Origin: Bacteroidales bacterium
Lineage (GTDB): Bacteria > Bacteroidota > Bacteroidia > Bacteroidales > F082
DNA length: 27,946 nucleotides
Direction: 5' to 3'
NCBI GenBank assembly: GCA_017428285.1
Contig: JAFRRE010000036.1
Coordinates: 1 to 27,946, forward strand
This document shows, piece after piece, positions 3,082 to 25,980 of this stretch. Position 1 is the stretch's first letter, and each line of letters begins with the position of its first letter. Both the position numbers and the translations under genes were made by a program. Under the pieces are notes generated by a model that ran no database searches, had not been told where the DNA came from, and was given only the letters and a program-made list of their open reading frames with translations.

Positions 3082-3125
3082 GGTTCGTGAGTGTTTAGAG
3101 TTATTATTCGTCGGATTTGATGGGA

Positions 3126-3133
3126 CAAATATA
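3126..3133 (-). promoter_or_regulatory. Putative -7 box for the exported gene at 1819-3081
   Basis: CAAATATA on the plus strand reads TATATTTG on the minus strand, an exact TAnnTTTG match 45 bases upstream of the ATG at 3081. A CAAA at 3149-3152 would be the -33 TTTG but with only 15 bp spacing, so that part is weak. Confidence 0.45.
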
Positions 3134-3288
3134 TGATATTTTTTAATTCAAATGCATATTTTTATACTTTAGTTTAATTTTTTTCTTTTTTAATAGTAAA
3201 AGCAACTAAAAAGAAATTGAGGATTCGCTGACATAATATTAATGAAAAATTCGTGTTCAATTAATGGCAATTATATGTTTAAATACTT

Positions 3289-3296
3289 TATTTTTG
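3289..3296 (+). promoter_or_regulatory. Putative -7 box for the acyltransferase gene
   Basis: TATTTTTG is an exact TAnnTTTG match 14 bases upstream of the ATG at 3310, which implies a very short leader. The expected -33 region has no clear TTG or TTTG. The rest of the 228-base gap from 3082 is AT-rich and shows no further gene. Confidence 0.4.
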
Positions 3297-3309
3297 CCCC
3301 ATCAAACCG

Positions 3310-3978
3310 ATGCCCATGACCGCTTTCGATTTCTTCAATATCCTTTGTTCGATTCCGAAGACGCTACGCTTCAACCTGCATTATTTTCCACTGAAAACGG
3401 CCTTGAAGTTGCCTGTCGTGGTGTCGCATCGCACCTATCTGCGCGAACTGCACGGCAAGGTGGAACTTCCCGAAAAGGTGGAAAGGGCAATGGTGAAAAT
3501 CGGCTTCGGCGATGTGGGCCATTACGACCGCAAACGCTCACGCGGCATCTGGCAGGTGAAAGGCACGGTCAGCTTTGGCGGCAAGGCCAGCATTGGGCAT
3601 GGTTCGAAGATTTCGGTGCGCGGAAACCTGTTTTTTGGCGATGGCTTCAATATGACTGCAGAAAGTACCATCGTCTGTGCCAAGGAAATCCGTTTTGGTA
3701 ATGACTGTCTGCTGAGTTGGGACATCCTCGTGATGGACACCGATGAGCATCCCTTGTATAATAAGGATAATGAACGCATCAATCCCGACAAGCCCATCCT
3801 TGTGGGCGACCATGTGTGGATTGGCTGCAAATGTGTGTTGCTGAAAGGTGCCGTGGTGCCCGACAACACGGTCGTGGCGGCAGGCACACTGCTGACCTCA
3901 TCTTTCAGTGGCGAGCATCAAGTCATTGGCGGCAACCCGCCAACAGTCCTCAAGCACGACATCCGCTGGGAACATTGA
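3310..3978 (+). CDS. Left-handed beta-helix (hexapeptide repeat) acyltransferase
   Basis: The protein has 222 residues. From about residue 83 it shows the turn pattern of hexapeptide repeats: VSFGGKASIGHGSKISV, ITRFGND-like turns, then ILVGDHVWIGCKCVLLKGAVV and PDNTVVAAGTLLT. The segment MDTDEHPLYN (His147) is in the position of the catalytic histidine of xenobiotic and sugar O-acetyltransferases of this fold. It ends IGGNPPTVLKHDIRW, like the 'xGNPAkxIk' C-termini of the family. The donor is probably acetyl-CoA; the acceptor, perhaps a cell-surface sugar, cannot be read from the sequence. There is no glycan cluster next to it, and it is convergent with adk. ATGs at 3310 and 3316 are both possible; the first is given. 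Confidence 0.85.
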   Translation: MPMTAFDFFNILCSIPKTLRFNLHYFPLKTALKLPVVVSHRTYLRELHGKVELPEKVERAMVKIGFGDVGHYDRKRSRGIWQVKGTVSFGGKASIGHGSKISVRGNLFFGDGFNMTAESTIVCAKEIRFGNDCLLSWDILVMDTDEHPLYNKDNERINPDKPILVGDHVWIGCKCVLLKGAVVPDNTVVAAGTLLTSSFSGEHQVIGGNPPTVLKHDIRWEH

Positions 3979-7711: not shown

Positions 7712-8002
7712 AGCGATGTGTTTTTGAAGATTTTTGATTAAGAGTTAATTTTCCGTTTTTAATCTAATTTTTTCCTTTTTATACCGCAAAAATACAACGT
7801 GAAAAATATTTTGTCAAGGAAAATTTTCAACTATTTTTCATCATAGGGGATAAGCCACTGTGTGACAGCAAGAAAAAATGATATTTTTTTTGAATTTTGT
7901 TGATTTAAACATAAAAATTCCGTTTAAATCGTAAAAAATCCGCTTTAAATCTATTTTTTTGGACAGCTTCATGCCTCGCAGTGACTAAAAGCGTAGTTAA
8001 GT
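7712..8002. other. AT-rich intergenic region with promoter and short iterated motifs
   Basis: No gene was found here. It holds the promoter of the gene at 6203-7711. At 7902-7951 the motif TTTAAA(T/C)C is repeated three times at spacings of 19 and 21 bases, with TAAAAAnTCCG between copies. The first two units make a perfect 9-bp inverted repeat (GATTTAAAC 7902-7910, GTTTAAATC 7922-7930). This could bind a dimeric regulator or be simple AT-rich drift. Confidence 0.4.
7787..7817 (-). promoter_or_regulatory. Putative promoter of the T9SS protein gene at 6203-7711
   Basis: On the minus strand a TTG (complement of CAA at 7815-7817) is followed after 20 bp by TATTTTTG (complement of CAAAAATA at 7787-7794). 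Both boxes and the spacing fit the Bacteroidetes -33/-7 promoter. The ATG is 76 bases downstream. Confidence 0.6.
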
Positions 8003-8132
8003 AGATTCCCTTCGGGAATAGCAAAATGGATTGTTTTGTTATCTACGGCGGGTTGTAAAGTTTACGCTTTGTAAGCTTTACAACCCGCCGCTTGTCAATT
8101 TATGATCGGACTCCATTCCCCATGGGAATCTC
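8003..8132. repeat. ~130-bp inverted-repeat element, copy A (abuts M16 stop codon)
   Basis: The right end reads ACTCCATTCCC-CAT-GGGAATCTC (to 8132) and is the inverted form of the left ends of copies B and C. The left end (AGATTCCCTTCGGGAAT from 8003) is degenerate after the hairpin. Inside is a perfect 15-bp stem: CGGCGGGTTGTAAAG (8046-8060) with CTTTACAACCCGCCG (8076-8090). The base after the element is the first base of the M16 stop codon on the minus strand (8133-8135), so element and gene touch without a gap. It probably acts as the terminator of that gene. Confidence 0.75.
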
Positions 8133-9368
8133 TTAATTCCCTTCAAAAATGATTTGGCTGAGTTGCTGCTTGTCGAAGACCTGATTGGCCACTTCAAGGA
8201 TGTCGTCAGCCGTCACGGCTTCTACCTTGCGAATGATGTCGTCCATGTATTCGATAGGCTCGCCCATGATGAGCGAACGGGTTGCACTCAGCAACTCATT
8301 CATGCCGCTTTCATAGCTTAAAGCTACCTGTCCGATGAGCTGCTGCTTGGCATGATGTAGTTGCAAAGTGCCCAACTTTTGTGTGCATAGCTTATCCAAT
8401 TCCTTGTGCACCAATTCAATGGCTTTTTCCAATGAGTCGGGGTCGACACCCATGTAGACATTAATGAGACCGACATCGGAATAGGCGGTGTATTGCGACT
8501 CGATGCTGTAGGCGAATCCGTATTTTTCGCGGATGTTCAAGCCAAGGCGTGAACTCATGGCGGGTCCTCCAAGCACATTGTTGAGCATCACGACAGGCAT
8601 TTTCAGCGGACTGCAAAACTCGGGTGCGATACCGCCTATAATGCAGTGGCTCAGATGGTTGTTGCGCTTGTCGGTGCGGCTTTCAGGCTTGTAGCCTTTG
8701 AAGTTTTCGCGTTTTTTATTAATAAAATGTGCGGGCTGGCCACCAAAATAGGTCATAGCCAGCTTTTCAAACTCCTTGAAACTGATGCCGCCGATGCTGG
8801 CCAATATCATTTGGTCAGTGCTGTAGTTGTGCGCCATGAAGTCGAGGATGTCTTGGCGATGGAATCCTTTAACCAATTCGGTGGTACCCAATATGTTGCG
8901 TGCCAAAGGATGCCCTTTGAAGACCATCTCCTCAAACAGGTCGTAAATCTCATCTGAGGGAGAGTCGAGATAGGAGTTGATCTCGTCCAAGATGACTTCC
9001 TTTTCCTTGGCCAGCTCGTTTTCGGGGAAGGTGGAACGGAAGGCGATGTCGGCAAAGAGGTCGAGACTACGCTTGTAGTGCTGCTTGAGGAAGGTGGCTT
9101 GGATGCAGGTCTCTTCTTTAGTGGTGAAAGCGTTGAGGTCGCCCCCAACATTGTCGAGGCAACTCAGGATGTGATAAGCCTTGCGGTTTTGCGTGCCTTT
9201 GAAGATGGTGTGTTCCACGAAATGGGCGAGGCCGTTCTCGTGGGCCAGCTCATCGCGGGTGCCAGTCTCCACCATCAGCACCAAGTGGGCGATTTCACCT
9301 TGTTTTTCCTTATGTATCAGCCGAATGCCGTTTGGGAGAACAGCCTCGGAGTAGTAGTTTTCCTGCAT
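8133..9368 (-). CDS. M16 family zinc metallopeptidase (processing-peptidase-like)
   Basis: The protein has 411 residues. It has the inverted zinc motif HFVEH (His49, Glu52, His53), in the usual context GLAHFVEHTIFKGT, and the distal glutamate about 75 residues later in VILDEINSYLDSPSDE. The C-terminal half has the family's R/Y substrate motif: LNIREKYGFAYSIES followed by GLINVYMGVDP. Members are related to mitochondrial processing peptidase and PqqL/YmxG and degrade or trim peptides. No signal peptide is visible, so it is probably cytoplasmic. Translation may start at ATG 9368 (used here) or GTG 9371. Its stop codon is directly followed by a repeat element, and the final residues EGN are encoded by GAAGGGAAT, which resembles the element's own end. 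It is divergent from the large subtilisin-like protease. Confidence 0.92.
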   Translation of the reverse strand: MQENYYSEAVLPNGIRLIHKEKQGEIAHLVLMVETGTRDELAHENGLAHFVEHTIFKGTQNRKAYHILSCLDNVGGDLNAFTTKEETCIQATFLKQHYKRSLDLFADIAFRSTFPENELAKEKEVILDEINSYLDSPSDEIYDLFEEMVFKGHPLARNILGTTELVKGFHRQDILDFMAHNYSTDQMILASIGGISFKEFEKLAMTYFGGQPAHFINKKRENFKGYKPESRTDKRNNHLSHCIIGGIAPEFCSPLKMPVVMLNNVLGGPAMSSRLGLNIREKYGFAYSIESQYTAYSDVGLINVYMGVDPDSLEKAIELVHKELDKLCTQKLGTLQLHHAKQQLIGQVALSYESGMNELLSATRSLIMGEPIEYMDDIIRKVEAVTADDILEVANQVFDKQQLSQIIFEGN

Positions 9369-9386
9369 CACTTAAAAATTGGGCTG

Positions 9387-15959: not shown

Positions 15960-16955
15960 ATGCCTATGCAAGATGATTCCATGACCCTCCAACTCCCTCG
16001 CATTGGACTTAGCCAAGGCGACTTCAACGGTATCGGTTACGAGGTTATGCTGAAGACCTTTTCCGATGCACGCATGTTCGAAACTTTCACTCCTGTCTTG
16101 TATGGACAATCCAAGGCATTCTCCTATTACAAGAAGAATTTCGGCATGGAAAGCCCCAACTATGCCTTGACCCGCGATGTGCGGCAGGCTGGTGACAAGA
16201 AGTTCAACATTATCAACATAGTGGAAAACGAATTGAAGATTGAGCCGGGAGTGCCTTCCGATATTTCGGCTGAGATGTCGGTGCTTTCGATGAAACGGGC
16301 TGCCGACGACCTGCAGAACGGTTTTCTCGATGCCTTGGTGATGGCGCCCGACAATCCTTTGGTGGCAAAGAGTAACCGCGATTTCCTGCTGTCGTTCCAT
16401 AAGGAAGCCAACCCCTTGCAGGTTTTGGTGAGCGGACAGTTGCGTATCGCTTTAGCCACGAGTGACGTGCCTTTGCGTACCGCGCTCGACCAAATCGACA
16501 TCCGTTTCCTCGTTTCCAAGCTCTCCACCTTATCGCAGGCCTTGAAAACGGATTTCGGCATTAGCTCGCCGAAGATTGCCGTCATGGGCGTGAATCCGCA
16601 TTCGGGCACAATGCCTACAGGCGATGATGAGAAGGTGGTGAAGGCCGTGGGCGATGCACAGCAAAAGGGGGTCTTTGCCTTTGGGCCTTTCTCGGCTTCG
16701 CAGTTGTTTGCAGCGGGCTGGTGGAAGAAATATGATGCCGTGATGGCCATGCACTATGAGCAAGGCGTGTTCCCGATGAAGTTCCTGTCGACGGAAGGAT
16801 ATGCCTATTACTGGGCAGGCTTGCCTGTGGTGTGTGCCGCCCCGCTGCATGGTCCTGCCTACGACATCGCCAACCAGAACAAGGCTGTCCCCGACTCCTA
16901 CCGCAAGGCGGTGTTCCTTGCCGCCGATGTGGTTGGTCATCGTAGAGAGCAATAA
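15960..16955 (+). CDS. PdxA-like protein (4-hydroxythreonine-4-phosphate dehydrogenase family), divergent
   Basis: The 331-residue length fits PdxA, which oxidises 4-phosphohydroxy-threonine in vitamin B6 synthesis. Family segments are clear: GDFNGIGYEVMLKTFSDARM (20-39), FLDALVMAP (122-130), MGVNPHSG (209-216), WAGLPVVCAAPLHGPAYDIA (285-304). However, catalytic positions are altered. In E. coli PdxA the metal is held by His166, His211 and His266. Here the first lies in ATSDVPL (Asp169 instead of His) and the third in AMHYEQG (Tyr266 where the family has AMYHDQG); only His214 remains. The usual APINK and GHTEYL motifs read APDNP and FHKEA. It may be inactive, or act on another substrate or without the usual metal. 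ATGs at 15960, 15966 and 15981 are possible. I leave the gene symbol empty because of these changes. Confidence 0.82.
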   Translation: MPMQDDSMTLQLPRIGLSQGDFNGIGYEVMLKTFSDARMFETFTPVLYGQSKAFSYYKKNFGMESPNYALTRDVRQAGDKKFNIINIVENELKIEPGVPSDISAEMSVLSMKRAADDLQNGFLDALVMAPDNPLVAKSNRDFLLSFHKEANPLQVLVSGQLRIALATSDVPLRTALDQIDIRFLVSKLSTLSQALKTDFGISSPKIAVMGVNPHSGTMPTGDDEKVVKAVGDAQQKGVFAFGPFSASQLFAAGWWKKYDAVMAMHYEQGVFPMKFLSTEGYAYYWAGLPVVCAAPLHGPAYDIANQNKAVPDSYRKAVFLAADVVGHRREQ

Positions 16956-16984
16956 AAAAGGAGACCCGAAAGTCTCCTTTTTTT
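16954..16984. terminator. Bidirectional terminator between the pdxA-like gene and paralog 1
   Basis: AAAAAAGGAGAC (16954-16965), loop CCGAAA, GTCTCCTTTTTT (16972-16983). It has A and T tracts on both sides, so it serves both convergent genes. A near-identical copy lies at 19140-19169. Confidence 0.9.
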
Positions 16985-17007: not shown

Positions 17008-19017
17008 TTACTTCACAACGAACTTGATGGTCTTGTTGAAACCATTGGCGCTGATGGTGCAGAAGTAGATGCCGCTCTTGAGGTCGAGGCTGATGGTGTT
17101 TTCACCCATCTTCAGGCTTTGGTTGAACTGTTTCACAGTCTGGCCAACGAGGTTGATGATGCTGATGTTAGCCTCAACATTCTCTGATGAGTTCACAACC
17201 ACGTAATCAGTAGCAGGATTGGGATAGATGTTGTAAACCACATCCTTGGCTTCATAGTTTTCAGGCACGCTCACAAATTCAGGGTTAGCATTAATCTTGA
17301 TGGCATGCATAGTGTTGTCAGAAGCGGTAGTTTGAGCCTGACTATCACCCCAGTACAAACCGATTTTGTCATCGCTCATGAAACCAAACCAGAACTCGCC
17401 AGGAGTGTAGGTGTTGGGGACACCCACTGTGAACATGTTGTCAGAGTAGAGGAACATGAAGTTGACTTCTTCATCGGTGAGGTCGTCTTCAAGTACATGC
17501 CAATAGCCTTCATCAACGTTGTAGTAGCTTACATAGATGCTTCTGTAGTAGTAGGTGCCATTGTCGTCAAGACGTCTGGTGCAAGGTGATGAGAAGGCGC
17601 ATGCGAGGTTGCCAAAGGGATCGCAGCTAAGAGCCGGATGACCTGAAGCACCGTAGAATCTGGAGTGATAATCGGTTTCGTGATAGAATTTGTTATTGTC
17701 CCAGTCGATGTTTTCGAACATCGGGATGTAACCAATCCATCTGGTTGAATCGGGCACCATGTGGACATAACCAGGCTCATCCACGATAGGCCACCAGAGA
17801 CGTGCGGCGTGGAACGGGTTGGGATGGGCAAAATGCTCTTCCAAGGAAGTGCCCAAATATTCCGGGTGCTCGGTGTCTTGGATGGGAGCCTCTTGGGTGT
17901 CGTTCCAATAGAGGATACCATCGACGGAACGACCTGACCAGCTGGTATAATAACCAGGTTCGTTCTCCAACGAGTGAGTCATTTCTAAGGTGTTTAATGC
18001 GACATGAGTAACACCGCTGTTGTCGATGACGACGGTACCATTCATGGGCATGAACAGGGTGTCGCCATAGTCAAAGACCTCGTCGAGTGAGCGGCCTTCG
18101 TGGGGGTGTTCCCAAATTTTCGTGGTCTCCCAAGTCAGACCATCATCGGTCGACTTGAACAACCAGGTACTATTGGTAAGGCAACCTGAATAAAGGAGGG
18201 CTACGGTGTGACCGTTAGCGGCCATGCAATAGTCGTCGGCTGAGAAGTTGTCCACCTCATAACCAAGACCGAGGTCAGCGATAGGACCATAGCTGACCGT
18301 CCAGTTTTCGGCGTCGTCCGAACGCCACATGACGGTGTGGCTGTGAGTCTCATTGCTACTTACTTGGTGCTGGAGGGCACCGACAGCAATGATGATATTA
18401 TGATTGTCGCCGCAAGTGACCACTCTTGGCCAAGTGGGGTATTCGTCGTAAGGATATCCTGCTGGATAATCCGGAAGGGCACCTTTGTATATCCATTCTC
18501 CTTCGCCAGCAATGTCTCTTGTGTAGCACTGCATGTGGCTATTACCGTGGCAAAGCATGATTTCGCCGTCTTTCCATCGGGCGATGGAAGGCCAACCAGT
18601 TCTAAAATCTTCGATGCGGTTCTCAGGCATATCCTGCCACTCAGTGCCGTTGTAGAAGTTGTAACCCGTACCACGGTCGGAAGCCGACTGGTTGGGTTGG
18701 TGTGACATCGTGGCGACATAGGCGACTGAGCCATTTTCCAATTCATACATGCGGTTGCTGCAGTAATGGTTGGACTGCAAGTCGTACGTGGTCACCATGG
18801 TCTCGCCGTCTTCGAGGTCTTGGTATCTGTTGACAACGACACTCTTAGCGGTTTGTGGAGTGAAATTGGTAGCTGTGGGGGCAACTGTTTCTTTACCCAC
18901 TGCAACTTTCTTAGCGCTTACCGTGGCTTGACGGACGTCGTTCTTGGCAACACGCTGTTGTGCAAATGCACTGAAGCCTAAAGCAAGGCTCAATGATAGT
19001 AAAACTAATTTCTTCAT
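17008..19017 (-). CDS. T9SS-secreted protein with Asp-box motif, tandem paralog 1
   Basis: The protein has 669 residues. The signal peptide is residues 1-20 (ALGFSAFAQ). An Asp-box, STDDGLTW (residues 289-296), and a degenerate one (SDDAENWT, 233-240) point to a sialidase-type BNR beta-propeller. The usual catalytic sialidase residues (Arg triad, FRIP) are not evident, so enzymatic sialidase activity is not claimed; carbohydrate or protein binding is equally possible. The C-terminal ~75 residues are a T9SS type A sorting domain: YNIYPNPATDYVVVNSS, ISIINLVGQTVKQF, LKSGIYFCTI and IKFVVK. The next gene on the same strand, 19192-21189, is a close paralog. The two share the signal peptide, the sorting domain and long internal stretches such as GASGHPALSCDP. 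It has its own promoter and terminator. Confidence 0.85.
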   Translation of the reverse strand: MKKLVLLSLSLALGFSAFAQQRVAKNDVRQATVSAKKVAVGKETVAPTATNFTPQTAKSVVVNRYQDLEDGETMVTTYDLQSNHYCSNRMYELENGSVAYVATMSHQPNQSASDRGTGYNFYNGTEWQDMPENRIEDFRTGWPSIARWKDGEIMLCHGNSHMQCYTRDIAGEGEWIYKGALPDYPAGYPYDEYPTWPRVVTCGDNHNIIIAVGALQHQVSSNETHSHTVMWRSDDAENWTVSYGPIADLGLGYEVDNFSADDYCMAANGHTVALLYSGCLTNSTWLFKSTDDGLTWETTKIWEHPHEGRSLDEVFDYGDTLFMPMNGTVVIDNSGVTHVALNTLEMTHSLENEPGYYTSWSGRSVDGILYWNDTQEAPIQDTEHPEYLGTSLEEHFAHPNPFHAARLWWPIVDEPGYVHMVPDSTRWIGYIPMFENIDWDNNKFYHETDYHSRFYGASGHPALSCDPFGNLACAFSSPCTRRLDDNGTYYYRSIYVSYYNVDEGYWHVLEDDLTDEEVNFMFLYSDNMFTVGVPNTYTPGEFWFGFMSDDKIGLYWGDSQAQTTASDNTMHAIKINANPEFVSVPENYEAKDVVYNIYPNPATDYVVVNSSENVEANISIINLVGQTVKQFNQSLKMGENTISLDLKSGIYFCTISANGFNKTIKFVVK

Positions 19018-19097: not shown

Positions 19098-19139
19098 CAC
19101 AAAGTGCCGTGTTTTTTTTCGTTTTGGGTGGGAAAATAA

Positions 19140-19169
19140 AAAAAAGGAGACCCGAAAGTCTCCTTTTTT
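19140..19169 (-). terminator. Terminator of paralog 2 gene (duplicate of the 16954 hairpin)
   Basis: AAAAAAGGAGAC (19140-19151), loop CCGAAA, GTCTCCTTTTTT (19158-19169): stem and loop are identical to those at 16954-16983, and the following ATTGACYAATGTCAAG is shared as well. This shows that the gene duplication carried its downstream region with it. Confidence 0.9.
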
Positions 19170-19191
19170 ATTGACTAATGTCAAGAGAGTC

Positions 19192-21189
19192 TTACTTCAC
19201 CACGAACTTGATGGTCTTGTTGAAACCATTGGCGCTGATGGTGCAGAAGTAGATACCGCTCTTGAGGTCGATGCCGATGGTGTTTTCACCCATCTTCAGG
19301 CTTTGGTTGAATTGCTTCACAGTCTGGCCAACGAGGTTGACGATGCTGATGTTAGCTTCAACATTCTCTGATGACTTCACAACCACGTAATCGGTAGCGG
19401 GGTTGGGATAGATGCTGTAAACCACATCCTTGGCTTCGTAGTTTTCAGGTACGCTCACATATTCAGCATCAGCATTAATCTTGATGGCATGGATGGTGTT
19501 GTCTGAAGCATTCTGTTGTGTAGCGTAGCTACCCCAATACAAACCGATTTGGTCATCGCTTTGGAAACCGAACCAGTATTCACCAGGATGGTAGGTGTTG
19601 GGGGCACTAATTGTGAAGAGGTTGTCGGAGTAGAGGAACATAAAGTTGACTTCTTCATCGGTGAGGTCGTCAACGACTTGTTCCCAGTAACCTTTGTCAA
19701 CGTTGTAGTAGCTTACGTAGATGCTTCTGTAGTAGGAAGTGCCATTGTCGTCAAGACGTCTGGTGCAGGGTGATGAGAAAGCGCAGGCGAGGTTGCCGTA
19801 GGGGTCGCAGCTAAGAGCCGGATGACCTGAAGCGCCGTAGAATCTATAATGATAATCGTTTTCATTGTAGAATTTGTCATTGTCCCAGGCGATGTTTTCG
19901 TACATCGGGATATAACCAATCCATCTGGTTGAATCGGGGTGCATTCTTACATAGCCGGGTTCATCCGGGATAGGCCACCAGAGACGTGCGGCGTGAGCCT
20001 GGTGAGGAGTGGCAAAGTGCTCCTCGTAAATAGTGCCAATATACTCCTCGTGATCGGTGTCGTGGATGGGATCTTGGGTGTCGTTCCAATAGAGGATACC
20101 ATCGACGGCACGACCAGACCAGCTGGTGTAATAACCGGGGTCTTGGCCTTCAAGACGGGCCATTTCAAAGGTGTTGAAAGCCGTGTGGACAACGCCATTG
20201 TTGTCGATAACCATAGCACCGTTCATGGGTCTGAACAGGGTGTCTTCATACCACACGTTCGGGTCGTTCCAGTCGGAACCTTCGTATGGGTCTTCCCAAA
20301 CTTTCGTTGACGTCCAAGTGATACCATCGTCGAGTGATTTGAACATCCAGACGCTTTGGGTCAAAGAACCAGTGTAAAGAATGGCTACAGTGTGACCGTT
20401 GGCTGCAAGGACATAGTCTTCGGCGGAGAACTCAGTTTCTAAACCAACTTCAGCAATGGGGCCGTAAGATATGGTCCAGTTCTCGGCATCCTCCGAACGG
20501 AGATAAACCTGATGGTGAACTACTTCATCGCTACTTATTGAGTGCTGGATGTCGGCAACCACGTGGATGATGTTGTGGTTGGGGCCAGAAGTGGCAACTC
20601 TCGGCCATGAAGCATCGTCAGTGTAAGGATAGCCTTCGGGAGAAGCGGGGAGTTGGCCTCTATCTACCCATTCGCCTTCGCCAGCGATGTCTCTGGTCCA
20701 GCAGTGCATGGGAGCGTGTGAGATGAGGATTTCGCCCTTGTCGCCCCACTGAGCGATGGTGGGCCAACCCATTCTGTTGGGTTCGACACGTGCCTCAGGC
20801 ATTTCCTGCCATTCTGAGCCGTTGTAGAAGTTGTAACCTGTACCACGGTCTGTTGCTGTTTGGTTGGGTTCGTGTGAGAATGTAGCAACCACAGCGGCTG
20901 AACCATTATCCAACTCATACATACGGTTGGAGCAGAAAGTGTTGGACTGCAGGTCGTACGTGGTCACCATGGTCTCACCGTCTTCGAGGTCTTGGTATCT
21001 GTTGACCACGACACTCTTAGCGGTTTGAGGAGCAAAATTGGCCATTGCGGGGTTGATCTTTTCATTACCCACGGCAATTTTTTCGGCTTTCATTTGGGTA
21101 GCGCGGCTGTCGTTCTTGGCAACACGCTGTTGTGCAAAAGCACTGAAGCCTAAAGCAAGGCTCAATGAAAGTAGTAATACTTTTCTCAT
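19192..21189 (-). CDS. T9SS-secreted protein with Asp-box motif, tandem paralog 2
   Basis: The protein has 665 residues and the same architecture as its downstream neighbour: signal peptide (MRKVLLLSLSLALGFSAFAQ), an Asp-box region (SLDDGITW) in a propeller-like body, and the T9SS type A domain starting YSIYPNPATDYVVVKSS. Alignable without large gaps to paralog 1. Differences cluster in the middle, for example residues 160-220 and 300-330, while the first ~30 residues, the sorting domain and the 3' noncoding sequence are nearly the same. The repeated motifs DSTRWIGYIPM, ASGHPALSCDP and FSSPCTRRLDDNGT are conserved in both and are likely structural or functional. Binding or cleavage of a surface glycan or glycoprotein is a guess from the fold only. 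Confidence 0.85.
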   Translation of the reverse strand: MRKVLLLSLSLALGFSAFAQQRVAKNDSRATQMKAEKIAVGNEKINPAMANFAPQTAKSVVVNRYQDLEDGETMVTTYDLQSNTFCSNRMYELDNGSAAVVATFSHEPNQTATDRGTGYNFYNGSEWQEMPEARVEPNRMGWPTIAQWGDKGEILISHAPMHCWTRDIAGEGEWVDRGQLPASPEGYPYTDDASWPRVATSGPNHNIIHVVADIQHSISSDEVVHHQVYLRSEDAENWTISYGPIAEVGLETEFSAEDYVLAANGHTVAILYTGSLTQSVWMFKSLDDGITWTSTKVWEDPYEGSDWNDPNVWYEDTLFRPMNGAMVIDNNGVVHTAFNTFEMARLEGQDPGYYTSWSGRAVDGILYWNDTQDPIHDTDHEEYIGTIYEEHFATPHQAHAARLWWPIPDEPGYVRMHPDSTRWIGYIPMYENIAWDNDKFYNENDYHYRFYGASGHPALSCDPYGNLACAFSSPCTRRLDDNGTSYYRSIYVSYYNVDKGYWEQVVDDLTDEEVNFMFLYSDNLFTISAPNTYHPGEYWFGFQSDDQIGLYWGSYATQQNASDNTIHAIKINADAEYVSVPENYEAKDVVYSIYPNPATDYVVVKSSENVEANISIVNLVGQTVKQFNQSLKMGENTIGIDLKSGIYFCTISANGFNKTIKFVVK

Positions 21190-21335: not shown

Positions 21336-21465
21336 GAGATTCCCGAAGGGAATGGAGTTCCCCACTCCCGTTTCTAGCGACGGCTTATGCCGTTTACAAC
21401 TCAAGAGCGTTACCTGCCGCCGTGAGTTACAATACAATCGATAATCCATTCCCAAAGGGAATCTC
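21336..21465. repeat. ~130-bp inverted-repeat element, copy B (between divergent genes)
   Basis: Starts GAGATTCCC-GAA-GGGAATGGAGT (21336-21358) and ends ATCCATTCCC-AAA-GGGAATCTC (to 21465), so the ends are inverted copies, each a small hairpin. The interior contains ACGGCTTATGCCGT (a palindrome), CTGCCGCCG and AACTCA/TGAGTT arms. It is less regular inside than copies A and C. It lies between the promoters of the paralog 2 and GH92 genes; the rest of the 346-base gap (21190-21535) is AT-rich and shows no gene. Confidence 0.75.
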
Positions 21466-21535: not shown

Positions 21536-24505
21536 ATGAAAAAGCTATTTCTACCCTTGATGCTGCTCTGCCTTGCGGCTTGCAGCACTGAACCTAAGGC
21601 CGATTATGTTGCCGACCCAGCCAGTTATGTCGATCCCTTCATTGGGACGGGCGGTCATGGCCATACCTTCCCAGGCGCGACTGTGCCTTTCGGCATGGTG
21701 CAGTTCAGCCCCGACACGCGCATGAACGACTGGGACGGCTGCTCGGGCTACCACACCTCCGACAACACCATCCTCGGCTTCAGCACCACCCACCTCAGCG
21801 GCACCGGCTGCTCCGACTATGGCGACTTTAGGTTTATGCCCATTGTGGGCGAGGTGAAACTCGACAAAGGTGATGAAAACAATACTGCTTCGGGCTACCG
21901 CTCGGCATTCAAACATGAGAATGAAGATGCCAAGGCAGGCTATTATGCCGTTCTCCTTGATGACTATAATACAAAGGTAGAACTTACCACTGGCGACCGT
22001 GTCGGCATGATGCGCTGTACTTTCCCGAAAGGTGCGGATGCCCACATGTTCCTGGATATGATTGAAGGTGTCAACGATGAGTTTGTGTATGAAGCCAATC
22101 TTAAGATGGAGGGCGCGAATGCCATTAGCGGTTTCCGACGCACCAGAGATTGGGCTAACGAGCAATACCTTTATTTCTATGCTGAGTTCTCGAAACCGTT
22201 CAAGGATTATTCTTTCTTCGACAATGGTGAAAAGGTGGTTGCGGATACCGCTGCAAGCGATAAGTTGAAGGCATGTTTTGATTTTGATACGGCAGAGGGT
22301 GAACAAATCGTTATGCGCATCGCTATTTCCGCCGTCGACGTGGAAGGCGCCAAGAACAACTTGAAAGCAGAACTGGCCGAAAACGACTTCGACTTCGATG
22401 CCTTGCGCCAAAAGGCCTACGACAAATGGAACAAGGAGATGAAACGCTACGAGGTGGCCGACAACAACGAGGCCAACAAGACGGTGTTCTACTCCGCCCT
22501 CTACCACTGCATGGTTGCCCCCAACCTTTATAGCGATGCCGATGGCCGTTACCGTGCCCACGACCTGAAAGTCTATAAGTCGGAAAGACCTGTCTACACG
22601 GTCTTCTCGCTGTGGGATACCTTCCGCAGCTTGCATCCGCTCTTCAGCTTGATGCAGCGCGAACGCACCCTTGATTTCATCAACACCTTTATTAATAAGT
22701 ACGAGACCAACCCGCACCACATGCTGCCCATCTGGGAGTTGGCCGCCAATGAGACCTACTGCATGATTGGCAATCACGCTATCCCCGTCATTGCCGACGC
22801 CTATTTCGCTGGTATCCGTGACTTTGATGCCGAAAAAGCCTTGGAAGCCATGGTGGCAAGCTCGAAGGATGACTTCCGTGGCATGGGTGCCTATATGAAA
22901 TATGGCTACATCCCGATTGAGGTTGAGGGTGAAGCCGTTTCCAAGACTTTGGAATATGCATACGACGACTGGTGTGTGGCTCGCATGGCTGAAGCTTTGG
23001 GTAAGACAGACATTGCCAAGGAGTTTTATGCCCGCGCACAAGCTTATAAGAACATCTACAACCCCGAGAACCAGTTCTTCCAAGGTCGCCGCAATGGTGG
23101 CTGGATGAAGCCTTTTGACCCCGCACAGGTCAACTTCACACTGACCGAGGCCAATTCTTACCAATACGGATTCTTCGTGCCGCAGGATGTGAATGGACAC
23201 GTCGACTTGATGGGTGGAGCGGTTGACTATGAGGCCAAACTCGACGGACTCTTTAACGCTCCTTCCAACCTGACAGGACGCGAGCAGCCCGACATAACAG
23301 GTCTCATTGGACAGTATGCCCATGGCAATGAGCCAAGCCACAACACGGTGTATATGTACAACTTTGTTGGCAAGCCTTCCAAGACGCAATACTATGTAAA
23401 GAAAGTCATGGATGATTTCTATACCGACCGCCGCGACGGTTATGCCGGCAACGAGGATTGCGGCCAGATGTCGGCATGGGGCGTTTTCTCAGCCATGGGC
23501 TTCTATCCTGCCACACCCGCTTCGGGCTATTATGTGCTGGGACTGCCGCGTTTCCAAAAGATCAGATTGACAATGGAGAACGGCAAACAATTTGAGGTGG
23601 TGGCTAAAAACTTGAGTTCCAAGAATTGCTATGTGGAATCGGTGAAACTGAATGGCAAATCGTTGGAACGCAGTTACATCACCTTTGAAGAAGTGTTCAA
23701 TGGTGGTGTTTTGGAGTTTACCATGACCGATCAAGCCAATTCCACTTGGGCCACACAGCCCGAGAATTGCCCTGTGATGCGTATCCATGGCGAAAGTATT
23801 GTCATCGTTCCCACCATCAACACCAATTCCGACACTTTCTTCGACAGCTTGATGATTAGCATGAGCCATCCTGTTGAAGGCGTGAAGATTTACTATACTA
23901 TGGATGGCAGCGACCCCAAGGAAAACGGATTGTTGTTTGAACAACCAATTTGTGTCAAGGACAACGCCACCGTGCGTGTTGCAGCCAAGCAGGAAGAGCG
24001 TTGGAGCAACGAAATTGATGCCCATTATTACAAGATAGACGCGCGTCATTCGGTGAAGCTGGAGCATAAATACAACGAACAATATGAGGCGGGCGGTCTC
24101 AAGGCTTTGATTGACCATCAGCGCGGCGGCGAGAACTTCCGCACGGGCTCTTGGCAGGGCTATTATGGTGTCGACCTCATCGCCACCGTTGACTTGGGAC
24201 ACTCAAAGAGAATCAACCGTTTGGCCGGCAGTTTCTTGCAGGAAATCTACTCATGGATTTGGATGCCTACCGAAGTGGAATACTTTATCAGCGATGATGG
24301 CAGGAATTTCCGTAGCGTGGGCAAGGTGATGAACCAGGTGCCTATCGACGCCGACGGTGCTTTCATTCAGGAGATGGAAGTGCGCCCGCGCACCAATGCC
24401 CGCTATGTGAAGATGGTGGCCAAGACCATTGGCACCTGCCCTGAAGGCCATGTCGGCGCTGGACAGAAGGCTTGGATCTTCTGTGATGAACTGGTGATAG
24501 AGTAG
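21536..24505 (+). CDS. GH92 family alpha-mannosidase lipoprotein with C-terminal carbohydrate-binding domains
   Basis: The protein has 989 residues. A lipobox LAAC (Cys16) marks it as a lipoprotein, so it is anchored to the outer membrane or periplasm. The GH92 core (about 25-740) has YVDPFIGTGGHGHTFPGA at the N-terminus, the general acid region NETYCMIGNHA (Glu406), and GNEDCGQMSAW near residues 639-649, which holds the catalytic acidic pair. Family members are exo-acting, calcium-dependent mannosidases that trim alpha-1,2/1,3-mannose from N-glycans or mannans. Beyond the core, a chitobiase-like domain (YYTMDGSDPKENG, about 770-830) and a discoidin/F5-8C domain (ATVDLG..., about 880-989) extend it to a length greater than usual for GH92, which suggests glycan binding. 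The stop codon at 24503-24505 is followed at once by repeat copy C. No SusC/D pair is nearby, so it is not in a classical PUL here. Confidence 0.94.
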   Translation: MKKLFLPLMLLCLAACSTEPKADYVADPASYVDPFIGTGGHGHTFPGATVPFGMVQFSPDTRMNDWDGCSGYHTSDNTILGFSTTHLSGTGCSDYGDFRFMPIVGEVKLDKGDENNTASGYRSAFKHENEDAKAGYYAVLLDDYNTKVELTTGDRVGMMRCTFPKGADAHMFLDMIEGVNDEFVYEANLKMEGANAISGFRRTRDWANEQYLYFYAEFSKPFKDYSFFDNGEKVVADTAASDKLKACFDFDTAEGEQIVMRIAISAVDVEGAKNNLKAELAENDFDFDALRQKAYDKWNKEMKRYEVADNNEANKTVFYSALYHCMVAPNLYSDADGRYRAHDLKVYKSERPVYTVFSLWDTFRSLHPLFSLMQRERTLDFINTFINKYETNPHHMLPIWELAANETYCMIGNHAIPVIADAYFAGIRDFDAEKALEAMVASSKDDFRGMGAYMKYGYIPIEVEGEAVSKTLEYAYDDWCVARMAEALGKTDIAKEFYARAQAYKNIYNPENQFFQGRRNGGWMKPFDPAQVNFTLTEANSYQYGFFVPQDVNGHVDLMGGAVDYEAKLDGLFNAPSNLTGREQPDITGLIGQYAHGNEPSHNTVYMYNFVGKPSKTQYYVKKVMDDFYTDRRDGYAGNEDCGQMSAWGVFSAMGFYPATPASGYYVLGLPRFQKIRLTMENGKQFEVVAKNLSSKNCYVESVKLNGKSLERSYITFEEVFNGGVLEFTMTDQANSTWATQPENCPVMRIHGESIVIVPTINTNSDTFFDSLMISMSHPVEGVKIYYTMDGSDPKENGLLFEQPICVKDNATVRVAAKQEERWSNEIDAHYYKIDARHSVKLEHKYNEQYEAGGLKALIDHQRGGENFRTGSWQGYYGVDLIATVDLGHSKRINRLAGSFLQEIYSWIWMPTEVEYFISDDGRNFRSVGKVMNQVPIDADGAFIQEMEVRPRTNARYVKMVAKTIGTCPEGHVGAGQKAWIFCDELVIE

Positions 24506-24634
24506 GAGATTCCCCTGAGGGGAATGGAGTATATCTATTAGTTTCCAGCGGCGGTAGAACCTGTAATAAAGCAGGTAACTGTATTTACCGCCGCCTGAAA
24601 CACCGAAACGAACTCCATTCCCGAAGGGAAACTC
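24506..24634. repeat. ~130-bp inverted-repeat element, copy C (abuts GH92 stop codon)
   Basis: Starts GAGATTCCCCTGAGGGGAATGGAGT (in its first 25 bases) at the base right after the GH92 stop codon and ends ACTCCATTCCC-GAA-GGGAAACTC at 24634. The interior pairs GCGGCGGTA (24548-24556) with TACCGCCGC (24586-24594), further extended by GTTTC/GAAAC, and encloses ACCTG...CAGGT. It should form a large stem-loop and end GH92 transcription. It sits 49 bases before the phosphofructokinase start. Confidence 0.8.
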
Positions 24635-24683: not shown

Positions 24684-25901
24684 ATGAAAGAATCCATCGT
24701 AATCCTCGCCGGCGGCGGTCCGGCACCTGGAATCAACACGGTCATCAGCACCGTGGCCAAGACCTTCCTCAAGGACGGTTATCGTGTACTCGGCCTTAAC
24801 GACGGCTACAAAAACCTTTTCCAACCCAATCCTGATGTGGTCGAAATGGATTTCCTCTATGCCGATGCCATCCTCAAACAAGGTGGTTCGGCCTTGAAGA
24901 TGAGCCGCTATAAACCAAAGAACGAGGAGTTTAACACTGAGTTCTTTGTCAAGAACAACATCAAGCTGTTGGTCACCATCGGTGGCGACGACACCGCTTC
25001 GACGGCCAACCGCATCTCGAAGTTCTTGGCCAGCAGTGGCTTCCCCATCCAAAACATCCACGTGCCCAAGACCATCGACAATGACCTTCCGTTGCCCGAA
25101 GGCAGTCCGACCTTTGGCTATTATTCCGCTAAGGACGCCGCTGTGCATTTGGTGCAGACCATATACGAAGATGCTCGCACCAGTGGCAACTGGTTTGTGG
25201 TCTCAGCCATGGGTCGCGAGGCGGGTCACTTGGCTTTCGGTATGACTTCGGCCTGCCACTGCCCGATGGTGGTTATCCCTGAGATGTTCAACAAGACGGA
25301 AGTCACCTTTGATGCCATCATCAAGTTGGTGGTCAGCTCTATCGTGAAGCGCAAGCTGTTGGGTGTCAACTATGGCGTGGTCATCATCAGCGAGGGCGTG
25401 TTCCACTTCATGAGCGATGAGGAAATCGAGAAGTCGGGTGTGGCATTCACCTACGATGAACATGGCCATCCCGAATTGGGTAATGTCAGTAAGGCGCACA
25501 TCTTCAACCTCTTGCTGCAACAAAGACTGAAGGCTTTGGGCATCAACGTGAAGAGTCGTCCCGTAGAAATCGGTTACGGCATCCGTTGCGTCGAGCCTAA
25601 TGGCTACGACCTGACCTATTGCTCATTGCTGGGCTACGGCGTGAAGAAACTTTTCGATAAAGGCGTAAGTGGTGCCATGGTCACGGCCAACCCGAAGGGC
25701 GAGATTGAACCGCTCTATCTGAAGGATGTCGAAGACGAGAACGGCAAGATCAAGCCGCGTTTGGTCAACCTGAACGGTCCGAAGGCCGAGTTGATTTTCA
25801 ACGACGGTCTGCAGTACCTCAGTCCCGCCGACTATGAGGCCGCCAAGGCTTTCCTCCCCAATCCGGAGGACTACGACTTCAAGAAGATTTTGAAGTGGTG
25901 A
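24684..25901 (+). CDS. pfp: 6-phosphofructokinase, PPi-dependent type
   Basis: Phosphorylates fructose 6-phosphate to fructose 1,6-bisphosphate in glycolysis, in the cytoplasm. The protein has 405 residues. It starts with GGGPAPGINT (about 10-19) and has IGGDDTA (GGDD at 100-103) and PKTIDND (128-134). The Asp after GGD (GGDD rather than GGDG) and the Lys in PKTIDND (where ATP enzymes have Gly) are the features that switch the donor from ATP to pyrophosphate in this superfamily, so PPi is the expected donor and the reaction reversible. EMGREAG-like AMGREAGHLA (about 175-184) and the C-terminal GYGIRCVEPNGYDL are in place. The leader between copy C and the ATG is very AT-rich, with TTTAAATC repeated. 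Confidence 0.93.
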   Translation: MKESIVILAGGGPAPGINTVISTVAKTFLKDGYRVLGLNDGYKNLFQPNPDVVEMDFLYADAILKQGGSALKMSRYKPKNEEFNTEFFVKNNIKLLVTIGGDDTASTANRISKFLASSGFPIQNIHVPKTIDNDLPLPEGSPTFGYYSAKDAAVHLVQTIYEDARTSGNWFVVSAMGREAGHLAFGMTSACHCPMVVIPEMFNKTEVTFDAIIKLVVSSIVKRKLLGVNYGVVIISEGVFHFMSDEEIEKSGVAFTYDEHGHPELGNVSKAHIFNLLLQQRLKALGINVKSRPVEIGYGIRCVEPNGYDLTYCSLLGYGVKKLFDKGVSGAMVTANPKGEIEPLYLKDVEDENGKIKPRLVNLNGPKAELIFNDGLQYLSPADYEAAKAFLPNPEDYDFKKILKW

Positions 25902-25907
25902 TTCATT

Positions 25908-25980
25908 TGTAGAGCTGTCGTATTACGGCAGCCGCGATATGTCAAATCATCAGCGGCTGCCACGATGTGACAGCCCTACA
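25908..25980. repeat. Imperfect 28-bp palindrome after phosphofructokinase
   Basis: A left arm at 25908-25935 (TGTAGAGCTGTC...GGCAGCCGC) pairs with a right arm at 25953-25980 (GCGGCTGCC...GACAGCCCTACA) across a 17-base loop, with a few mismatches in the middle. It begins 7 bases after the stop codon. The TGTAG ends resemble those of the palindrome at 6133-6160, so the two may belong to one repeat group. Confidence 0.7.

What the first reader, a model, noticed from the sequence alone, without database searches (positions are those of the whole stretch)
24506..24634. Three-copy family of ~130-bp elements with hairpin terminal inverted repeats
Copies at 8003-8132, 21336-21465 and 24506-24634 share ends of the form GAGATTCCC-N3/4-GGGAATGGAGT in inverted orientation, while their interiors differ in sequence but keep a GGCGG-based inner palindrome. 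Constant length and compensating inner pairing suggest selection on structure. No transposase is present, so they would be non-autonomous (MITE-like) or an RNA-structure-based repeat. I do not recognise this family.
Basis: seen in the sequence. Interest (0 to 1): 0.7.

Follow-up and report, generated by a model that had tools for sequence, protein, structure and literature searches.

The report
Gut-bacterial hairpin repeats with swapped cores
Three short hairpin-forming repeats in this window belong to a family with a few dozen copies per genome in one genus of gut Bacteroidales; they often sit right behind a gene's stop codon and keep their ends while their middles are swapped or flipped between related genomes, which makes them a new cousin of known intergenic palindromic repeats rather than a new kind of system.

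Summary
The three ~130-bp copies belong to a large family, confined in what was sampled almost wholly to one genus of gut Bacteroidales; G003, fetched nearly whole, holds 33 near-full copies. Each copy has two inverted end hairpins (ATTCCC-loop-GGGAAT) around a ~80-bp core with GCGGCGGC/GCCGCCGC arms. No target duplication, no longer element with these ends in G003 and no Y1 transposase within 3 kb of a copy were found, so 'MITE' is unsupported. Pair-specific covariation inside the core was not seen, except in one pair of the GC arm. Two further features: (1) 13 of 33 copies in G003 abut a stop codon within 3 nt, against 2.5% expected; window copies 1 and 3 do too. (2) At the same site in different genomes (73 unique pairs, 41 sites) the core is conserved in 39, replaced in 23, intermediate in 7, inverted in 4; in replaced pairs the end loops still match in 18 of 44 cases against 13% by chance. 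Window copy 3 is inverted relative to three relatives. Best reading: a new REP/BIME/ERIC-like repeat family, mover unknown, remodelled by recombination or template switching.

The parts
8003..8132 (.). Copy 1: left hairpin 8005-8019 (its foot is TAG at 8002-8004 and the GGAGT block is lost), core palindrome 8046-8090, ACTCC 8110-8114, right hairpin 8115-8129, CTC 8130-8132. Abuts the stop codon (8133-8135, minus strand) of the M16 peptidase gene 8133-9371.
21336..21465 (.). Copy 2: GAG + hairpin 21339-21353 + GGAGT; core arms GCGACGGC / GCCGCCG within about 21377-21422; right hairpin 21448-21462 + CTC. Lies in the gap between two divergent genes (19192-21189 minus, 21536-24505 plus). Its orthologue in G001 (L010/L056) is 94% identical in the core.
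24506..24634 (.). Copy 3: GAG + hairpin 24509-24525 + GGAGT; core GCGGCGGT 24548-24555 / ACCGCCGC 24587-24594; ACTCC 24612-24616 + hairpin 24617-24631 + CTC. Starts on the base after the TAG of the GH92 gene 21536-24505, ahead of a phosphofructokinase gene (24684-25901). Core inverted relative to the same site in L132, L298 and L308.

Best explanation
A genus-restricted family of ~130-bp non-autonomous interspersed intergenic palindromic repeats that work like REP/BIME/REPIN and ERIC-type repeats. Shown: one near-palindromic unit of two inverted end hairpins around a GC-armed core; tens of dispersed copies in some genomes; strong bias to the position just behind stop codons; presence/absence differences between relatives; and, at one and the same site, retained ends with conserved, replaced or inverted cores. 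Inferred: copies spread in trans by an activity that was not identified; settled copies then exchange or flip their cores by recombination or template switching at the shared hairpins and GC arms; and tolerance (or mild use) behind stop codons keeps them there, where the mRNA would carry a stable 3' hairpin.
For: Census of 33 near-full copies in G003; patchy counts within one genus and none in 16 other families nor in 59 other families with a stricter pattern; 13 of 33 G003 copies abut a stop against 2.5% expected, and 11 of 33 lie between convergent, 3 between divergent genes; 58 of 340 deduplicated ends have a long ORF's stop within 3 nt; 39 conserved, 23 replaced, 7 intermediate, 4 inverted among 73 unique pairs at 41 sites; end loops retained in 18 of 44 comparisons of replaced pairs against 13% in random pairs; a site where the right part from the GC arm outward is kept while the rest changed (L027/L062); 67 of 177 similar-core pairs have unrelated flanks, i.e. 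dispersal; a solo end and a core-less pair of ends at G003 sites that are filled elsewhere.
Against: No donor for replaced cores was traced: in G003 near-identical cores occur only in tandem and in 35 copies of G004 no pair is near-identical. The four inverted pairs come from only two sites, three of them involving window copy 3. In 27 of 39 conserved pairs the core scores at least as well as the flanks, which plain neutral decay does not explain. No mover was found. Empty-site junctions are untidy, so insertion and deletion cannot be told apart.
Confidence: 0.55

Rival explanations
1. REPINs of an unseen RAYT: the end hairpins are REPs of a Y1 (TnpA_REP-like) transposase that moves the doublet as single-stranded DNA, the enzyme gene being lost or absent from incomplete bins.
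For: Inverted hairpin doublets with a variable spacer are the REPIN layout (PMC3116915 passages). These genomes hold several Y1 genes flanked by hairpins of other families, and Bacteroidetes Y1 subclass 2.6 is reported with 'atypical secondary structures' (PMC6006769 passages).
Against: The 22 Y1 hits listed for the five element-rich genomes (G001 5, G003 5, G004 2, G031 4, G033 6) have no copy in the neighbourhoods fetched; over 52 Y1-like ORFs the nearest copy is 3,198 bp away, 45 of them lying on sequences without any copy. No GT[AG]G or CGTC foot (ends GAG../..GGAGT).
Confidence: 0.2
2. A functional 3'-end RNA element: selection keeps a hairpin directly behind the stop codon to protect the mRNA 3' end or to tune translation; mobility is incidental.
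For: Stop adjacency; strong predicted fold; E. coli REPs within 15 nt of a stop are reported to stall ribosomes (PMC12306157 passages); cores often at least as conserved as their flanks (27 of 39).
Against: Many copies are far from a stop (20 of 33 in G003), 3 of 33 lie between divergent genes, one copy (L075) lies behind a terminator-like hairpin; sites without the copy are not significantly richer in hairpins than other post-stop sequence (28 against 150, p 0.24); no inner covariation; no T-run.
Confidence: 0.13
3. A MITE of a DDE-type transposon.
For: Inverted ends, small size, dispersed copies.
Against: No target-site duplication; no longer element with these ends in G003. Transposase families other than Y1 were not searched.
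Confidence: 0.06
4. A dedicated cassette-exchange system (integron- or shufflon-like) in which a recombinase acts on the hairpin ends and swaps or flips ~80-bp cores.
For: Ends and flanks kept while cores change or invert; strict size and a dyad RYTTAC-N5-GTAARY inside the core.
Against: No recombinase was linked to it (families other than Y1 were not searched); exchange is seen only between species-level genomes; one breakpoint lies at the GC arm, not at an end; ordinary recombination suffices.
Confidence: 0.06

Closest known systems
REP / BIME / REPIN repeats with RAYT (TnpA_REP)
   Same: Intergenic hairpins, often inverted pairs with a less conserved spacer, dispersed, partly within 15 nt of stop codons (passages of PMC3116915, PMC12306157, PMC3733652).
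   Different: No GTAG/CGTC foot, no Y1 gene beside a copy, a third GC-armed palindrome of nearly fixed size in the middle, and cores that change at fixed sites.
ERIC (enterobacterial repetitive intergenic consensus; recalled, no call)
   Same: About 127-bp imperfect palindrome between genes, no gene inside (recalled).
   Different: Other sequence and other hosts; ERIC is not known to me for separate end hairpins or core exchange. Not compared by sequence.
MITEs
   Same: Short, non-coding, inverted ends, dispersed.
   Different: No target-site duplication and no related autonomous element found; the ends are themselves hairpins.
Integron attC sites (recalled)
   Same: Short imperfect palindromes with conserved ends and variable middle.
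   Different: No R'/R'' core-site sequence (GTTRRRY, recalled) at the ends, no array; no integrase was searched for.

Membership tests
REP/REPIN (RAYT-associated) | Short hairpins in inverted pairs with a spacer, dispersed between genes | tested here: met
REP/REPIN (RAYT-associated) | GT[AG]G (or CGTC) motif at the foot of the hairpin | tested here: not met
   ends are GAG-hairpin-GGAGT, nearly invariant in 84 aligned copies; foot motifs from PMC3733652 and PMC6006769 passages. 'Atypical' feet are reported for Bacteroidetes subclass 2.6
REP/REPIN (RAYT-associated) | Cognate Y1 transposase gene flanked by the same hairpin | tested here: not met
   52 Y1-like ORFs, nearest copy 3,198 bp; 2 loci (L274, L275) have the similar hairpin GTTTCCC-TAC-GGGAAAC without the GGAGT block. 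Several bins are incomplete
MITE | Terminal inverted repeats | tested here: met
MITE | Target-site duplication | tested here: not met
   118 flank pairs, 2-10 bp, observed close to shuffled
MITE | Related autonomous transposon with the same ends | tested here: not met
   none in 2,109,263 bp of G003 (bin 72% complete); other genomes seen only in part
Structured RNA family | Pair-specific covariation of the helices | tested here: inconclusive
   one pair z 6.2; 13 inner positions together 1.8 sd above re-dealt halves, 107 of 122 cores used; a few changes in end stems
Structured RNA family | Match to a described family (Rfam 15) | tested here: not met
   three weak matches elsewhere in the window, none on a copy
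Intrinsic terminator | Run of T behind the hairpin on the gene-distal side | tested here: not met
   18 G003 copies: 4.1 T in 12 nt distal, 4.5 proximal
ERIC | Sequence homology to the ERIC consensus | not tested
   no comparison run

The most novel reading that the evidence does not exclude
The end hairpins are docking sites of a dedicated recombination system that swaps and inverts ~80-bp palindromic cores between sites behind genes, so that each gene's 3' hairpin is exchangeable between strains: an integron- or shufflon-like machinery for 3' untranslated regions.
Probability: 0.07. Interest if true: 0.85.

Novelty: new variant of a known kind. Interest (0 to 1): 0.5.

Why it matters
Interspersed palindromes of uncultured Bacteroidales seem hardly described: in the library searched one paper holds both 'extragenic palindrom' and 'Bacteroidales', and by title and abstract it is about Neisseria. 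Having the same sites in many related genomes with conserved, flipped, swapped, trimmed or absent copies makes it possible to ask directly how such repeats turn over, what moves them, and whether a hairpin behind a stop codon is used or merely tolerated.

Tried and rejected
MITE with target duplication: not supported. Long autonomous element: none in G003; the 33 unpaired end matches of the first loci, read by eye only, look like copies with a variant other end or chance matches. Intrinsic terminator: no T-run. Rfam: no match on a copy. RAYT partner: none beside a copy; the Y1 tree is partial because several reading frames were taken from the wrong strand. Covariation of the inner arms: not shown. 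'Another hairpin takes the element's place where it is absent': suggested by eye, not significant when counted. Oriented versus symmetric core: weak asymmetry (log-likelihood -7712.5 against nulls of mean -7753.8, sd 12.9, best of 20 -7725.0; the real data had 200 random starts, the nulls 60). Other hairpin families of G003 as a control for stop adjacency: too few hits (4, 3, 1 and 9). First strand guesses at empty sites were wrong for several rows; one search shows both strands.

Limits of the counts. Loci that repeat one genome (LPNG and G004, CADAPW and G031, ONFF and G033, CACXXW and G001, JAFPUN and G003) were recognised from equal coordinates or contig lengths; JAFPUN loci and some repeats of G001 were left out, and removes repeated sequence. 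The thresholds (flanks at least 80% over at least 90 bp; conserved at normalised core score 0.5 or more, inverted likewise for the reverse, replaced below 0.35 both ways) are mine. A further inverted-looking pair (L057:2150/L065) is not among those counted. G003 is 72% complete, and its contigs C23 and C24 lack their last 4.4 and 0.4 kb. R1 counts include both strands and are capped at 86 scored candidates per genome.

Full report
Check of the observation. The three copies are present at the stated places, each with two hairpins ATTCCC-loop-GGGAAT in inverted orientation (two of the six ends degenerate) and an inner GC-armed palindrome. The end motif is absent from 100 shuffles and the copies fold with z -6.3 to -9.3.

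Anatomy. From 134 loci, 162 copies were taken, 119 of them non-redundant and 126-144 bp long. Order of parts: GAG, hairpin, GGAGT, about 20 nt, GCGGCGGC, about 31 nt, GCCGCCGC, about 20 nt, ACTCC, hairpin, CTC. In 122 non-redundant cores of a wider set the distance between GCGGCGG and CCGCCGC is 33 nt in 82 and 34 nt in 25. The middle has a dyad consensus RYTTAC-N5-GTAARY. End loops vary (70 kinds among 379 ends; TTC in 126), some with longer complementary stems.

Structure or sequence. With re-dealt halves as control, only the eighth pair of the GC arm covaries clearly (81% paired against 65%, z 6.2); two positions next to it pair less often than the control (z -2.9, -3.2), and the 13 inner positions together give 5.87 against 5.59 (sd 0.157) (107 of 122 cores used). 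RNAalifold keeps three stems: the two end stems and the GC arm (84 sequences). So palindromy is a feature of the consensus; compensation inside the core is not shown.

Distribution. The model R1 hits 14 of 40 relatives, all 14 among the 24 genomes of genus g1, with great differences: G001, G003, G004, G031 and G033 have 50-86 hits (both strands counted, capped), nine others 2-14, ten none; none of 16 genomes of other families is hit. A stricter pattern hits 1 of 60 genomes of the order, the g1 genome itself. One contig labelled Muribaculaceae (L105) also holds a copy, so the genus limit is not absolute or that contig is misbinned. G003, fetched as 2,109,263 bp, has 33 near-full and 2 half copies.

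Position. In G003 15 copies lie between co-directional genes, 11 between convergent and 3 between divergent ones, and 4 overlap an ORF, against 61%, 15% and 23% for random intergenic points. 13 of 33 abut a stop codon within 3 nt; random points do so in 2.5%. Across 340 deduplicated ends, 58 have the stop of a long ORF within 3 nt. In the window, copy 3 starts on the base after the TAG of the GH92 gene and copy 1 ends on the base before the M16 peptidase gene's stop codon, while copy 2 lies between divergent genes. No T-run follows.

Turnover at fixed sites. I compared the flanks of copies between genomes (234 copies, 215 unique, 27 genomes counting the window's own after merging two double labels). 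73 unique pairs at 41 sites: 39 conserved, 23 replaced, 7 intermediate, 4 inverted. With both flanks at least 92% identical (25 pairs) the numbers are 16, 6, 2 and 1. In replaced pairs the end loops are identical in 18 of 44 cases, in random pairs in 13%, in conserved pairs in 52 of 67, while left spacer, middle and right spacer are at the level of random pairs. Examples are site A (L037, L073 and L121 share flanks and ends but not cores) and site D (L027 and L062 share flanks and the right part from the GC arm outward). Window copy 3 is the inverted form of the core found at the same site in L132, L298 and L308; these make three of the four inverted pairs, which come from two sites. A core like that of copy 3 sits at another site in L110. 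38 unique elements have an orthologous site without any copy; junctions are untidy, one G003 site keeps a solo end and one keeps both ends without the core. 67 of 177 similar-core pairs have unrelated flanks, so the units do disperse. Yet in G003 near-identical cores occur only in tandem, and in the G004 pieces (35 copies) no pair is near-identical, so donors of replaced cores were not traced.

Search for a mover. No long element with these ends was found in G003. Y1 genes (PF01797) are common in these genomes (23 of 30; 6 of 6), and several are flanked by hairpins of other families, as RAYT genes are. None lies near a copy: nearest 3,198 bp among 52 Y1-like ORFs, 45 of which lie on fetched stretches without any copy. 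Two Y1 loci (L274, L275) have a hairpin GTTTCCC-TAC-GGGAAAC, similar to but not the same as ours. Other transposase or recombinase families were not searched.

Comparison. Of the papers I saw passages only. PMC12306157 says that REPs within 15 nt of a stop stall ribosomes and credits an earlier study with 260 of 496 E. coli REPs in that position; PMC3733652 sorts most REPs by GTAG or CGTC feet; PMC6006769 notes atypical structures at Bacteroidetes Y1 genes; PMC3116915 defines REPINs as inverted doublets with a spacer. The present family works like these but lacks the foot motif and a cognate gene, so I do not file it as a REPIN. The searches listed no paper that, by title and abstract, describes it; only open-licence PubMed Central papers were searched, and only the first rows of long lists were shown.

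Mechanism. Shown: dispersal, stop-codon adjacency, retained ends with exchanged or inverted cores. Inferred: exchange by recombination or template switching between hairpin-rich copies, and spread by an unidentified activity. Unproven: any use to the cell.

Noticed in passing
window 25908-25980: Another palindrome (TGTAGAGCTGTCGTATTACGGCAGCCGC .. inverted), related to TGTAGGGCTGTCA.. palindromes also seen in G003 (41 loose matches with up to 3 mismatches, not all real). At the orthologous site L308 (a G004 piece) carries a copy of the present family instead (L308:6194-6330).
   Followed up: partly
L147, L151, L282, L286, L289, L274, L275, L144, L273, L276, L278: Several Y1 transposase genes of this genus and its relatives are flanked by repeated hairpins of their own (GCGTGTC-TTC-GACACGC, CATCCC-GTA-GGGATG, GTCACCCC-n3-GGGGT and others), as RAYT/REP systems are.
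   Followed up: partly
L017, L033, L034, L062, L111: Some copies have a lengthened end with a second small hairpin (ATTGACTTCGTCGAAT-like) between the terminal hairpin and the core.
   Followed up: no
L031:649-921 and 3111-3560; L058:4529-5485; L297: Local arrays of copies with like cores (regular spacing of about 143, 159 and 278 bp in L031 and L058); four copies of one core lineage on L297.
   Followed up: no
window 17008-19017 and 19192-21189: Two adjacent paralogous secreted proteins (repeat families D1-D7; a secretion-system C-terminal sorting domain found in the second) with nearly identical 35-nt terminator-like palindromes at 16950-16984 and 19139-19173.
   Followed up: no
L105 (Muribaculaceae-labelled contig), about 25-150: A complete copy in a record labelled as another family: wider spread or a misbinned contig.
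   Followed up: no
39 conserved pairs: In 27 of 39 pairs of orthologous copies with the same core, the core scores at least as well as its flanks, some 100% identical with flanks of 87-90% (L036/L055).
   Followed up: no
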